Assembly (NCBI RefSeq): GCF_000959525.1
Contig: NZ_CP009832.1
Span: 682,001-746,000, forward strand
Length of the DNA stretch: 64,000 nucleotides
From: Burkholderia multivorans ATCC BAA-247
GTDB taxonomy: Bacteria; Pseudomonadota; Gammaproteobacteria; Burkholderiales; Burkholderiaceae
Direction: 5' to 3'
The position numbers and the translations under genes were made by a program. Under the pieces are notes generated by a model. That model was given only the letters and a program-made list of their open reading frames with translations. It did not search any database and was not told where the DNA came from. Below are positions 57,513 to 61,317 of this stretch, piece after piece. Numbering within the stretch: the first letter of the stretch is position 1; the number at the start of each line of letters is the position of its first letter.

Positions 57513-58053
57513 AGAAACGTATGTCTCGAGCATAGCGGGACAGCCCGCCGTAGGGACGTGAAGGTGCGAGAGCGGTGGAAATGGTGTAATGTGCGTCCGC
57601 TCCGTGATCATGCAAGATGTCCACTGTGGCCGCTGTGGTGGCCCGTCAGGGGCGAGCGACGTGACTTCGACGTATTACTTGCACTGTAGTGTTCTGGTCG
57701 GCGCCAGTTGAGAAGCTCGAGCGCACCATGCGTTTCTGTATAGGGGCTTCTCACGGTTGTTCTGCGTCGTCGTCGGTGATATCGCGGCAAGTTCATGTCT
57801 GAGAGTGAAGCTGCAACCCTCCAGCACTAAGTCGCTCTGCCACATGTGCAAGTGCGCATCGAACGGGAAACCTTTGAAGCGATAGCTCCGGTGCGATGGA
57901 GGAGGGAGCCGCGGTTGCTTTGGGACCGGTGTGCATGGTAAGTCGTGTAGTTCGCGACCAAGTCTCGCGTTGACCAAACGGCCAGTCTCTGGGCCTCCGA
58001 GGGCGGGTTAAAATCGCAGAGAATTCCAACATGCAAGACACACTCGGGGAAAA
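57513..58053. other. 541-base low-GC gap before the island operon
   Basis: GC content falls here and codon-like structure is lost, marking the left edge of the foreign segment. Two overlapping minus-strand frames (57675-57977 and 57827-58036) read fairly natural stretches such as RLAVWSTRDLVANYTTYH and YRFKGFPFDAHLHMWQ in different frames. These may be a frame-broken remnant. No ribosome binding site or named family was recognised. A TTAAAAT at 58009-58015 may belong to the operon promoter. Confidence 0.5.
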
Positions 58054-58458
58054 ATGGAAAACTACGCGGATGCTGCCGGACGTCACTGGGGTGATGGTCT
58101 CCTACTTGAGCGCGAAAGTCGCCTGGAGAATGCGGATCAATTGTACGGAATTGCTGCTGAATGTGCGATCAAGGCAGCCCTCGTCGCGTCTGCTGGCAAT
58201 TGTGCCTCGAATGGTCTTGCAAAAGCTTACAAGGCGCATATCGATGAGCTATGGGACAAGGTATCGGCGAATGCCATTCCAAGACATCTCGCTGCGCTTC
58301 CCCCGCTCCTGAAGATGGATAACCCATACTCGGACTGGAAGATTGATCAACGCTATGCCCGTAATGGCACTGTTACTGCAGATGCACTTGAGCGTCATAA
58401 GATGATGGCCAAGCGTCTGGTATCAGCGGTCGGCGTAGTTGGAACAAGGACGAAGTGA
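58054..58458 (+). CDS. Small HEPN-like protein, first gene of island operon
   Basis: A 134-aa mainly helical protein. YGIAAECAIKAAL (31-43) resembles the second helix of HEPN-domain proteins, and SDWKIDQRYARNGTVTADALERH (93-115) fits the final HEPN helices. The classical RNase motif Arg-x(4-6)-His is not obvious: R100-Y101 is followed by a Gly/Thr stretch and H115 is too far away. It may be a HEPN without nuclease activity or a divergent one. The stop is one base before the next start. The start has only a weak GGGG upstream. Codon use is unlike the chromosome. HEPN assignment is from pattern memory. Confidence 0.6.
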   Translation: MENYADAAGRHWGDGLLLERESRLENADQLYGIAAECAIKAALVASAGNCASNGLAKAYKAHIDELWDKVSANAIPRHLAALPPLLKMDNPYSDWKIDQRYARNGTVTADALERHKMMAKRLVSAVGVVGTRTK

Positions 58459-58459
58459 G

Positions 58460-59779
58460 ATGGCAAAGTTTGATGATGTGATCGGCATTGCGCTTGGACT
58501 TGTGAGGAAGTCAGTTGCCGGTGCACAGCCCATTCACATGGTTAGAGACACCAATGGCGCCCTGGTTGTCGTCCTACCCGATAACGCCGTTCCGGAGCAG
58601 CGGTGGAGTGAACTCGGACAGGAATTAGATTCTGCTCTTAAGCCGTATAGTCCCGGGGCAAGGCGGGTTTTGCTCTCCGCGTCGGATGTCTTGGAGCCTG
58701 CCGACGTATTTGATTCTCCGGACAAGGTGCCGGTGGAAGGGGAGCCCAACACGTGGCTGATCGATAGATTGATTACCAATCAAGATTGGTTGCGCCCTCC
58801 TTTGATTGCTGTGCCCCCGCTACCAGTTTTGGTTGCATTTAGCGTCAAAGGTGGAGTTGGGCGAACAACGGCTCTCGCTATGCTTTCGTGGTATTTGGCG
58901 CGCCAAGGCAAGGATGTTTTGGTTGTAGACCTCGATCTGGAGGCTCCAGGGATTGGGGAGCTATTGCTTTCAGAAATGCCGTCTTATGGGCTCGTTGACT
59001 GGCTTATAGAGTCCGCTAACACCGAGGACGGCGAGATGTCGCTCGACGAGTGTATCGGTATAAGTCCTATTGGCGACGATACCGCCGGCCGTGTACGAGT
59101 CCTTCCTGCATATGGGTTGGATAGTAAGGCATACATTGCCAAACTCGGGCGTATTTATGCACCGTCTATTGACAGTGAAGGTGTAGTTATAGGGTTGGCC
59201 GAGAGACTCGCGAAGCTATTGCATACAATCAATGGGTTGATGGAGCGCCCGGAAGTTGTGTTAATGGATGTCCGTGCCGGCCTCCATGATATAGGTTCAG
59301 CTGCAGTTACTCGATTGGGCGCGGAAGTGCTCTTTTTTGCGCGAAATGATTCGCAGAACTGGTGGGCGTATCGTCAACTATTTGATCACTTGAAGCACGC
59401 TCGAACCGTTGAAAACGGAATGGGTGACGACGATGATCTTCGCTGGCGCCTTAAGATGGTGGCTGCACAGACTGAACCTCGAGAGGACGTGAAGCGCGGT
59501 TGGATTAGTTCGTCTTATGACGTGTGGAATGAGTTCTATGACGACGAAACAGCGGGCGGGAATTCTGATTTCCAACCTGAGGTGTTCGATCGTTTCAGTG
59601 AGGAGGCTCCTCACTACCCATTATTTATTAGTCACGATCCGGCAGTACGTTCGTTTGTACTTAATGATGTTGCTTTGAGGCCCGATTGGTCTTATGTCGT
59701 TGGAGTGTTCGGTGATTTTTTCAAAGGCGCCGAGGATCGACTTTGGTCAACTTCCGCCGAAAAAAAGGATAGCCAGTGA
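58460..59779 (+). CDS. ParA/MinD-like ATPase with KGGVGR P-loop
   Basis: A 439-aa ATPase. The first 120 residues are a separate domain of unknown role. The deviant Walker A reads FSVKGGVGRTTALAML (about 127-142), with Arg where most ParA/MinD proteins have Lys, followed by VLVVDLDLEAPGIGELL (153-169) and a Walker B-like VVLMDVRAGLHDIG (266-279). The signature lysine (Lys130) is kept. After residue 300 comes an aromatic and acidic region (QNWWAYRQLFDHL, DDDDLRWRL, WNEFYDDE). It starts one base after the HEPN-like gene and shares GTGA with the next gene. I do not know a function; the KGGVGR type recurs in mobile, defence-like loci. Confidence 0.75.
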   Translation: MAKFDDVIGIALGLVRKSVAGAQPIHMVRDTNGALVVVLPDNAVPEQRWSELGQELDSALKPYSPGARRVLLSASDVLEPADVFDSPDKVPVEGEPNTWLIDRLITNQDWLRPPLIAVPPLPVLVAFSVKGGVGRTTALAMLSWYLARQGKDVLVVDLDLEAPGIGELLLSEMPSYGLVDWLIESANTEDGEMSLDECIGISPIGDDTAGRVRVLPAYGLDSKAYIAKLGRIYAPSIDSEGVVIGLAERLAKLLHTINGLMERPEVVLMDVRAGLHDIGSAAVTRLGAEVLFFARNDSQNWWAYRQLFDHLKHARTVENGMGDDDDLRWRLKMVAAQTEPREDVKRGWISSSYDVWNEFYDDETAGGNSDFQPEVFDRFSEEAPHYPLFISHDPAVRSFVLNDVALRPDWSYVVGVFGDFFKGAEDRLWSTSAEKKDSQ

Positions 59780-61251
59780 GTCTCAAGTCATACCAATTTG
59801 ATGCGTCAGCGATACGAAATGCACTGACTCGGATCGAGGATACGTCGCAGGAAAATCTAGTTCCGCCACCGCTGAGCACGATGTACTTGCCGCCGGCACA
59901 CGCGAAGGCGTTGAGTTTGAGCGCGAGTGTCGTCGTAGGACTTCGCGGAACAGGTAAGAGTTACTGGACTGCGGTGCTCAATAGTAAGGTTCATCGTGAT
60001 CAGGCTGCCCGAGCGGGGCGTTTGCCAGAGCTATTACGTACTGACGTTGCGGTTGGGTTCGCGCTTGACCCGAGCAGTCAAGATTTTCCGTCTACTGCAA
60101 CGCTGTCTAAATTGATTCAATCGGGAGTATCGCCGGATGATGTTTGGCAGACGGTCGTACTTGTCCATGCACTACGTGCTGCAAACCGCCAATCGCTGAC
60201 ACATGGAGCATGGGAAACTGCGATTCGATGGTTTGCGGGAAATCGAGATGAAGGATTAGCGTTGCTCGCGGAGTGCGACAGAGAAATTCAAGAGTCCGGG
60301 CGAGTACTGCTGGTTCTTTTTGATGCGCTCGATCGAGTTGGGTCTGACTGGTACGAAATAAGGCAATACCTCCAATCATTGCTGAAATTTTGTCTTCAAT
60401 GTCGATCTCGTCGCGCTATTCGTCTGAAGATATTTCTTCGGCCGGACATGGAGGAAGATGAAGAGGTCTGGAATTTTGTCGACAGCTCAAAGCTGCGAGC
60501 TAATCGGGTTGAGATATCGTGGCGTGCCATGGATTTGTTCGGCCTTATTCTACTTTATTTGGCCAACGATCAATATGTTGGAGACGATTTTCGGGCCGAG
60601 ACGTCACGCGTTTCCGATGTTGAATGGCAGGAGGTTGATGATATCTATCAACTTCCGAGAACGCTAGGCGCAAATGAGCAACCCGCAAGAGCAATAATCG
60701 AAGCCATCACAGGTCCATGGATGGGGACCAGCGCAAAGCGAGGATATGTTTATACGTGGATTCCGACACACCTCGCGGATGCGAAGGGTCGCTTGAGTCC
60801 GCGTAGTTTTTTGTTGGCATTTCGTGAGGCGGCTGAGTGGACAGAGCAGCATGAATCAGACAACGAGCGCGCGCTTAATTTCAATGGAATACACCAAGGC
60901 GTTACAAAGGCATCGGAAATACGAGTAGGCGAAATTTCAGAGGATTACCCATGGGTTCGTCCGCTGCTTGAGGCGGCGCGAGGTCTTACGGTGCCATGTG
61001 AAATTTCCGATTTAACGGGATATTGGAAAAGAGATCGCATGGCCCAATTTCGTCGAGCAGTCGCGGAAAAATTGCCGCCACGTAGATATGGAACCGACCC
61101 GCTTCGAAAGGAAACTACAGACGCACTTATTGAGGATCTCGTTGAATTAGCGATTTTGTATCGTACGGAAGATGATCGACTTAATATTCCTGATATTTTT
61201 CGTGTAGGATTCGGTATCAGGCGAAAGGGCGGGGTAAGGCCCCCTAAGTAA
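59776..61251 (+). CDS. Second P-loop ATPase of the island operon
   Basis: A 491-aa protein with Walker A VVGLRGTGKSYWTAVL (53-68) and Walker B RVLLVLFDALDRVGSDW (176-192), the hhhhD-A-L-D/E form seen in STAND and KAP-type ATPases. A helical central region (WYEIRQYLQSLLKFC) and LKIFLRPDMEEDEE follow. The C-terminal half (ATHLADAKGRLSPRSFLLAFREA region) resembles an ORC-like or winged-helix part, ending in basic residues. GTG 59776 overlaps the previous stop. No nuclease or membrane domain was recognised. Function is unknown; the context suggests a partner of the other two proteins. Confidence 0.75.
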   Translation: MSLKSYQFDASAIRNALTRIEDTSQENLVPPPLSTMYLPPAHAKALSLSASVVVGLRGTGKSYWTAVLNSKVHRDQAARAGRLPELLRTDVAVGFALDPSSQDFPSTATLSKLIQSGVSPDDVWQTVVLVHALRAANRQSLTHGAWETAIRWFAGNRDEGLALLAECDREIQESGRVLLVLFDALDRVGSDWYEIRQYLQSLLKFCLQCRSRRAIRLKIFLRPDMEEDEEVWNFVDSSKLRANRVEISWRAMDLFGLILLYLANDQYVGDDFRAETSRVSDVEWQEVDDIYQLPRTLGANEQPARAIIEAITGPWMGTSAKRGYVYTWIPTHLADAKGRLSPRSFLLAFREAAEWTEQHESDNERALNFNGIHQGVTKASEIRVGEISEDYPWVRPLLEAARGLTVPCEISDLTGYWKRDRMAQFRRAVAEKLPPRRYGTDPLRKETTDALIEDLVELAILYRTEDDRLNIPDIFRVGFGIRRKGGVRPPK

Positions 61252-61284
61252 TTCTAAAGCGGAAGTTTTTCAAGAAGGGGGCCC

Positions 61285-61317
61285 GCCCGATGTAACTTAA
61301 TACATCGGGCGTTTTTT
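61285..61317 (+). terminator. Terminator of the island operon
   Basis: GCCCGATGTA pairs with TACATCGGGC around ACTTAA, then G and TTTTTT. The T-run is only on the plus strand, so it ends the three-gene operon and not purB. Confidence 0.9.

What the first reader, a model, noticed from the sequence alone, without database searches (positions are those of the whole stretch)
58054..61317. Undescribed three-gene operon: HEPN-like protein plus two P-loop ATPases on a low-GC island
Seen directly: three genes with gaps of +1 and -4 bases, closed by a strong terminator, in DNA of clearly lower GC and different codon use than purB and the amine oxidase on either side. Gene 1 resembles a HEPN protein, gene 2 has a ParA/MinD-like loop with Lys130 and Arg at the last P-loop basic position (KGGVGR), gene 3 has Walker A VGLRGTGKS and Walker B LLVLFDALDRV. 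HEPN proteins are known effectors in toxin-antitoxin and phage-defence systems, and STAND/KAP-like ATPases are common sensors. Inference: gene 1 is effector or adaptor, genes 2 and 3 sense or transduce, giving phage defence or abortive infection. Strict operon structure and island context suggest the three work together.
Basis: partly seen in the sequence, partly recalled or inferred. Interest (0 to 1): 0.85.

Follow-up and report, generated by a model that had tools for sequence, protein, structure and literature searches.

The report
HEPN–ATPase phage-defence trio, horizontally acquired
A Burkholderia chromosome carries a gained three-gene cassette, probably a self-sacrificing anti-virus alarm made of a predicted RNA-cutting protein and two ATP-driven switches; it belongs to a listed but untested defence candidate, and some of its relatives sit inside other bacterial immune systems.

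Summary
In detail: three tight genes (gaps +1, -4) on a 3.77 kb, 52% GC insert in 68% GC DNA; 25 of 29 relatives read have the empty site. It is not undescribed: all three proteins match PADLOC's candidate PDC-M28 A, B and C nearly end to end; no paper found here tests it. New here: gene 1 has a predicted HEPN fold of the AbiV/AF0298 kind, with R-x4-6-H missing but Arg, Glu-x3-Lys and an alternative His invariant in 55 of 55 aligned sequences. Gene 2 is a KGGVGR-variant MinD/ParA-type ATPase (Arg in 101 of 101). Gene 3 has a STAND/Orc-Cdc6 fold. Gene order is kept in 88 of 91 copies. In 11 of 114 related loci the trio sits in BREX type 1 or 2, a BREX-related system or a type I restriction operon, in separate clades. 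Best reading: abortive phage defence in which the two ATPases sense infection and release a HEPN RNase, perhaps as a PrrC-like guard. Function is inferred, not shown. The 'operon terminator' is the older oxidase/purB terminator, and no wider island was found.

The parts
57513..61283 (.). Horizontally acquired insert between the amine-oxidase stop codon and the old oxidase/purB terminator hairpin; 3.77 kb, 52.1% GC
   Evidence: Empty site in genus relatives; GC. No terminal direct repeats and no integrase-sized ORF besides the trio.
58054..58458 (+). Gene 1: HEPN-fold protein, AbiV/AF0298-like, 134 aa; predicted RNase effector
58159..58173 (+). Gene 1 Glu36-x3-Lys40 motif in helix 2
   Evidence: Invariant in 55 of 55 aligned sequences, the window's included.
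58237..58239 (+). Gene 1 His62, candidate alternative catalytic His after helix 2
   Evidence: 55 of 55; an equivalent alternative His is described for AbiV and AF0298 in PMC3710099.
58351..58356 (+). Gene 1 Arg100-Tyr101, likely position of the Arg of the canonical R-x4-6-H; the His is missing
   Evidence: R100 and Y101 55 of 55; His at the canonical spacing in 8 of 55.
58460..59779 (+). Gene 2: KGGVGR-variant SIMIBI (MinD/ParA-like) ATPase, 439 aa
   Evidence: NCBIfam NF047398 169.1 bits, cut-off 90; PADLOC PDC-M28B 6.8e-127.
58847..58864 (+). Gene 2 deviant Walker A KGGVGR (Lys130, Arg135)
   Evidence: Arg135 101 of 101, Lys130 100 of 101 rows.
59776..61251 (+). Gene 3: STAND/Orc-Cdc6-type ATPase, 491 aa
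59935..59961 (+). Gene 3 Walker A VGLRGTGKS
   Evidence: G55, G58, G60, K61 116 of 116 rows.
60307..60336 (+). Gene 3 Walker B LLVLFDALDR
   Evidence: D183 116 of 116; D186 109 of 116, the other 7 Glu.
61284..61317 (+). Terminator-like hairpin and T run; ancestral oxidase/purB terminator, now downstream of gene 3

Best explanation
It is a complete, probably mobile anti-phage module of the PADLOC candidate type PDC-M28, acting by abortive infection. Gene 3, a STAND/Orc-Cdc6-type ATPase, probably senses an infection signal and changes state or oligomerises with ATP. Gene 2, a KGGVGR-variant MinD/ParA-type ATPase that is sometimes fused to gene 3, is the nucleotide switch that couples it to gene 1. 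Gene 1, an AbiV-like HEPN protein, is held silent and, when released, cuts or blocks RNA and stops translation. Shown by computation: gene identities, conserved motifs, predicted folds, conserved order and fusions, horizontal gain at this site, and embedding of some relatives in BREX and restriction operons. Inferred: defence activity, RNase activity, who senses what, and complex formation.
For: All three PDC-M28 models match. Order and strand are kept in 88 of 91 copies with at least 2.3 kb upstream, including 3 gene 2-gene 3 fusions. Pairwise distances of the three proteins correlate over 80 loci (r 0.79-0.91; shuffled maximum 0.13). HEPN fold with the AbiV/AF0298 pattern. Pfam HEPN_AbiV is seen in 26 of 55 family members at E up to 1, best 2.7e-5. 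STAND fold with CED-4/Dark, NLR and Avs3 matches. Relatives lie inside BREX-2 (L017, L019, L021, L072, L104, and L102 where the contig ends after the trio), BREX-1 (L044), DUF1156-methylase/PLD-helicase loci (L042, L151, L152) and a type I restriction operon (L153). On the gene 3 tree the BREX label needs 4 changes, at least 3 forced. Ten relatives lie on viral contigs; the 10 neighbour proteins I chose from five of those loci all match phage families.
Against: No wet test of this trio was found. The canonical HEPN motif is missing and the alternative site is unproven here. Gene 1 of the window has no Pfam hit of its own, and its best Foldseek E-value is only 0.19. 103 of 114 related loci were not found embedded in the systems tested, and the window copy stands alone. 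The tree's changes may include losses, not only gains. Two PADLOC candidates of the same series, PDC-M63AB and PDC-S04, showed no defence when tested by others (PMC12409345, passages). No separate ligand-sensing domain was recognised in gene 3.
Confidence: 0.6

Rival explanations
1. Defence system, but gene 1 is a non-catalytic HEPN adaptor or RNA binder; the harmful step comes from the ATPases or from partner systems such as BREX.
For: R-x4-6-H is present in only 8 of 55 aligned sequences. PMC3710099 describes some HEPN domains without the motif as likely RNA binders.
Against: His62, Arg100, Glu36 and Lys40 are invariant and fit the alternative site proposed for AbiV-type HEPN proteins. A PDB entry title calls AbiV an RNase. 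No other nuclease was recognised in the operon.
Confidence: 0.2
2. Toxin-antitoxin or addiction module: HEPN toxin neutralised by the ParA-like ATPase, kept because it stabilises plasmids and islands.
For: A HEPN (MAE_18760 family) plus ParA/Soj ATPase dyad has been postulated to be a toxin-antitoxin pair (PMC3710099). Relatives of gene 3 occur in 21 plasmid records.
Against: The third gene is nearly always kept. Embedding inside BREX and restriction operons fits defence better. The HEPN family differs: MAE_18760 is listed as keeping R-x4-6-H.
Confidence: 0.12
3. Housekeeping, partition or regulatory operon with no immune role.
For: Gene 2 has a MinD/ParA-like ATPase domain. The window copy lies between ordinary metabolic genes.
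Against: Patchy distribution (full-length gene 3 in 1 of 65 genus genomes; any match in 11 of 369 class genomes), foreign composition, and prophage, plasmid, BREX and restriction contexts of relatives.
Confidence: 0.05

Closest known systems
PADLOC candidate PDC-M28 (A, B, C)
   Same: All three proteins match nearly end to end, in the same number of genes.
   Different: No difference found. The library gives no description of it, and no paper naming it was found; of 14 papers that name PADLOC and such candidates I looked at passages of three.
AbiV and AF0298-type HEPN proteins
   Same: HEPN fold, Arg kept, canonical His missing, alternative His after helix 2, Glu-x3-Lys.
   Different: The window protein itself does not hit the AbiV Pfam model. 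Its partners are two P-loop ATPases.
PrrC in the PrrI type I restriction operon
   Same: HEPN with ATPase control, embedded in a restriction operon; as described in PMC3710099 (passages), PrrC fires when the phage disables restriction. Relative L153 sits between hsdS and hsdM.
   Different: PrrC is one protein with an ABC ATPase; here there are three proteins with SIMIBI and STAND ATPases. The window copy has no restriction partner beside it.
MAE_18760 HEPN plus ParA/Soj ATPase dyad
   Same: HEPN gene with a ParA-like ATPase gene (PMC3710099, passages).
   Different: That HEPN is listed as keeping R-x4-6-H and the unit is a pair; here the HEPN is of another kind and a STAND ATPase is added.
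STAND NTPases (CED-4, NLRs, Avs)
   Same: Predicted fold and P-loop motifs of gene 3.
   Different: No fused effector and no recognised C-terminal repeat region in gene 3.

Membership tests
PDC-M28 (PADLOC) | Component A model | tested here: met
   131.1 bits, E 9.3e-39, residues 2-127
PDC-M28 (PADLOC) | Component B model | tested here: met
   422.2 bits, E 6.8e-127, residues 1-430
PDC-M28 (PADLOC) | Component C model | tested here: met
   560 bits, E 1.1e-168, residues 9-490
PDC-M28 (PADLOC) | Anti-phage activity | not testable with these tools
   Candidate only; no paper naming it found
HEPN superfamily | HEPN helical fold | tested here: met
HEPN RNases, canonical | R-x4-6-H motif | tested here: not met
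   No His at the spacing after Arg100 in the window protein; 8 of 55 aligned sequences have it
AbiV/AF0298-type HEPN | Arg kept, canonical His absent, conserved His N-terminal to it, Glu-x3-Lys | tested here: met
   E36, K40, H62, R100 55 of 55; description in PMC3710099. Whether these residues meet in space was not measured
AbiV (Pfam PF18728) | Profile match of the window protein | tested here: not met
   0 Pfam families for P0001; 26 of 55 family members match at E up to 1, best 2.7e-5
KGGVGR-motif AAA ATPase (NF047398) | Curated score cut-off | tested here: met
   169.1 bits against 90
Sll1717 ATPase family (NF047389) | Curated score cut-off | tested here: not met
   65.9 bits against 75
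STAND/Orc-Cdc6 ATPases | Fold of the ATPase module and P-loop motifs | tested here: met
STAND sensors such as NLR or Avs | C-terminal repeat or ligand-binding region, fused effector | tested here: inconclusive
   No other domain in Pfam and matches span residues 10-481, but the C-terminal part was not folded or searched alone
PrrC/RloC | HEPN fused to ABC ATPase | tested here: not met
   Separate genes; ATPases are SIMIBI and STAND types
MAE_18760 HEPN-ParA pair | HEPN with intact R-x4-6-H beside a ParA-like gene | tested here: not met
   Motif absent; family description from PMC3710099

The most novel reading that the evidence does not exclude
The trio is a portable guard: a three-protein, apoptosome-like device in which a STAND ATPase and a KGGVGR switch hold an AbiV-type HEPN RNase in check and fire it when a phage disables or overwhelms a DNA-modification defence (BREX, BREX-related, type I restriction). 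It would be an independently evolved, modular counterpart of PrrC that has been plugged into at least four kinds of host systems and also works alone, as here.
Probability: 0.33. Interest if true: 0.78.

Novelty: new member of a known kind. Interest (0 to 1): 0.5.

Why it matters
It turns an anonymous library entry (PDC-M28) into a testable model with named residues: an AbiV-type HEPN RNase run by a STAND ATPase and a KGGVGR ATPase. If the guard reading holds, it would show that cells repeatedly bolt the same suicide module onto different restriction and BREX systems, and it would help explain how such systems cope with phage inhibitors. The free-standing copies, as in this window, would be the simplest forms to study.

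Tried and rejected
Undescribed operon: rejected, because PADLOC lists it. Defence hotspot between the oxidase and purB: no evidence. In 29 relatives read, 25 show the oxidase directly followed by purB. In L123, L133 and L136 no oxidase match was found there and purB lies beside the gluconate kinase/permease genes. L127 has only a short oxidase match at the usual place; its wider stretch (L148) was fetched but not read. Integrase-driven insertion: no integrase-sized ORF besides the trio and no terminal repeats; two small minus-strand ORFs of 97 and 100 aa in and around the upstream 540 bp were not searched. Promoter: the consensus scan found none upstream of gene 1. Dedicated terminator: rejected. 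Canonical HEPN RNase: rejected (8 of 55; with three allowed spacings that rate is about what chance gives). E. coli relatives: none of 5,426 genomes at DNA level with the Enterobacter copy as query, so protein-level relatives are not excluded. Phage collection by tblastn with gene 3: none. Methylase motif near the trio: weak, 4 of 284 near against 2 of 318 far ORFs. PADLOC scan of 86 of 319 neighbouring ORFs: 83 families matched, 25 shown, none in more than 2 of 86 members. Further PADLOC scans of neighbours that I picked gave no hit for L066 (2 proteins), L074, L083, L088, L092, L098 and L105. Solved structures by sequence: none for gene 3 at E up to 1, none below E 0.26 for gene 1. Literature: KGGVGR with ATPase 0 papers, PDC-M28 0, Sll1717 with ATPase 0; listings showed no paper on this trio by title. 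In the parts of the 2026 BREX survey that I saw (PMC12839542: outline, passages, section 22 and section 35 part 1) the trio is not described. Passages of PMC13092281, PMC7159879 and PMC12584637 do not mention it. The tree was built with the quick method only.
Full report
Observation. The composition contrast is strong: GC3 is 0.50, 0.51 and 0.45 in the three genes against 0.86-0.92 in five neighbouring genes. The insert has 52.1% GC against a 67.9% median for 3.2 kb windows of the 64 kb.

How it got there. purB is found in 65 of 65 genus genomes. In the same 65 genomes gene 3 is found full length only in the window's own genome, with one weak partial match elsewhere; in a class-wide sample 11 of 369 genomes, the own one included, have any match, three of them weak and partial. 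Of 29 relatives whose purB flank was read, 25 have the oxidase gene directly before purB, with a short spacer that holds a hairpin in all 25. The insert therefore runs from just after the oxidase stop (57513) to just before that hairpin (about 61283), 3.77 kb. No integrase-sized ORF or terminal repeat marks the insert. In the three relatives without the oxidase, purB lies beside gluconate genes and no other insertion was seen. The DNA is foreign but no larger island was found. The nearest relatives are on a Burkholderia glumae plasmid typed as conjugative (gene 3 81% identical), a Paraburkholderia plasmid (71%) and a Bordetella contig (70%).

What it is. PADLOC-DB has models for exactly this trio: PDC-M28A, B and C match at 9e-39, 7e-127 and 1e-168 over nearly the whole proteins. 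It is therefore a catalogued candidate, not an unknown. A text search for PDC-M28 found no paper. A 2026 archaeal survey says that these candidates were identified by a guilt-by-embedding approach and that most await validation (PMC12988326, passages). Two others of the series failed when tested (PMC12409345, passages).

Gene 2. It scores 169.1 bits against the NCBIfam KGGVGR-variant ATPase model, cut-off 90. The signature Lys130 is kept in 100 of 101 rows and the last basic position of the P-loop is Arg in 101 of 101; Asp157, Asp159 and Pro163 are kept in 101 of 101. Solved relatives by sequence include ArsA, Soj, ParA and MinD, aligned over the P-loop region.

The three belong together. Among 91 gene 3 copies in L015-L116 with at least 2.3 kb upstream, 85 have genes 1 and 2 in the same order, 3 have gene 1 followed by a gene 2-gene 3 fusion (L026, L057, L086), 1 has gene 2 only (L049) and 2 have neither (L024, L070); a more sensitive look found no gene 1 in L049. 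Genes 2 and 3 overlap in 73 of 86 unfused pairs, but ORFs were taken from the first possible start, which inflates overlaps. Protein distances correlate between the genes over 80 loci (r 0.79, 0.80, 0.91; shuffled maximum 0.13). Shared ancestry contributes to this, so it does not prove interaction. Fusions and tight order make a physical complex likely.

Context of relatives. In 11 of 114 related loci (six pairs of the 114 are duplicates or near-copies) the trio lies in another defence operon on the same strand, mostly with tight spacing. Six are in type 2 BREX (L017, L019, L021, L072, L102, L104); at L102 the contig ends after the trio, so only the pglW-pglX side is seen. One is in type 1 BREX, between pglX and pglZ-brxL (L044). 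Three lie between a DUF1156 methylase and a PLD helicase (L042; L151, the wider fetch of L005; L152, the wider fetch of L007); DUF499 and DUF3780-type genes precede them at L042 and L152, while at L151 a Ppl-type and a Schlafen-type gene are seen instead. I read these as type 2 BREX-related systems after headings and passages of PMC12839542. One is in a type I restriction operon, between hsdS and hsdM (L153, the wider fetch of L009). Five more lie beside restriction, helicase, methylase or pPIWI genes: L025, L026, L035, L070 (a lone gene 3) and L082. On the gene 3 tree the seven BREX loci need four changes, at least three forced by well-supported branches; such changes may be gains or losses, and 21 of 500 shuffles were as low (quick method). 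By eye on that tree L042 lies in a clade apart from that of L005 and L007. In the remaining 103 loci no such embedding was found with the queries used; many stretches are short, and only four of the unnamed-genome loci were fetched wider, so the 11 is a lower bound. Ten proteins that I chose near five of the viral-contig copies all match phage families (NinB, CII-like, antiterminator Q, major head protein, replication genes and others), so prophages carry it too.

The window copy. It has no recognised restriction or BREX gene beside it. Its genome has one type I methylase-like match 0.45 Mb away, with a model that also rings in 11 of 14 control genomes, and no match to the single PglX and DUF1156-methylase models tried. 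So here it acts alone or watches something at a distance.

How it probably works. The published parallel is PrrC: a HEPN RNase controlled by its own ATPase domain and by the restriction complex in whose operon it lies, and released when phage T4 disables that complex (PMC3710099, passages). The trio has the same logic with other parts: HEPN effector, SIMIBI switch, STAND sensor. I put about 0.6 on abortive phage defence with gene 1 as RNase effector, 0.2 on defence with a non-catalytic gene 1, 0.12 on an addiction module and 0.05 on a non-immune role. The guard form of the model has about 0.33.

Verdict. A sound observation and a mostly sound interpretation, of a kind already listed but, as far as the searches here show, unstudied. 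Its value lies in the named residues, the fold assignments and the repeated embedding, which together make the candidate testable.

Noticed in passing
window 61284-61317: The hairpin with T run is the ancestral oxidase/purB terminator, changed in sequence from its relatives.
   Followed up: yes
L070:3572-11452: A lone gene 3 follows a DinG-type and a pPIWI_RE gene in what looks like a pPIWI three-gene defence locus; genes 1 and 2 are absent.
   Followed up: partly
L045 (Pseudomonas lopnurensis): Two complete trios on opposite strands within 8 kb, facing each other.
   Followed up: no
L026, L057, L086, L012: Natural fusions of gene 2 and gene 3, 804-931 aa as read (L012 is cut by the end of the stretch); L026 lies beside a type I restriction gene.
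   Followed up: partly
L024 (Streptomyces alboflavus plasmid): Gene 3 relative without genes 1 and 2, a possible solo form.
   Followed up: partly
L060:783-2648: A TrwB/TraD-like coupling protein near the trio, hinting at a conjugative element in Thiorhodococcus.
   Followed up: no
L151:1872-3212: A Schlafen/AlbA-type protein just upstream of the DUF1156 methylase that precedes the trio.
   Followed up: no
L155 (own genome C3:1194167-1195291): A type I methylase-like gene in the window's own genome, about 0.45 Mb from the trio.
   Followed up: no
L040:1697-3042: Gene 2 is split into two open frames in this contig (break or sequencing error); left as it is.
   Followed up: no
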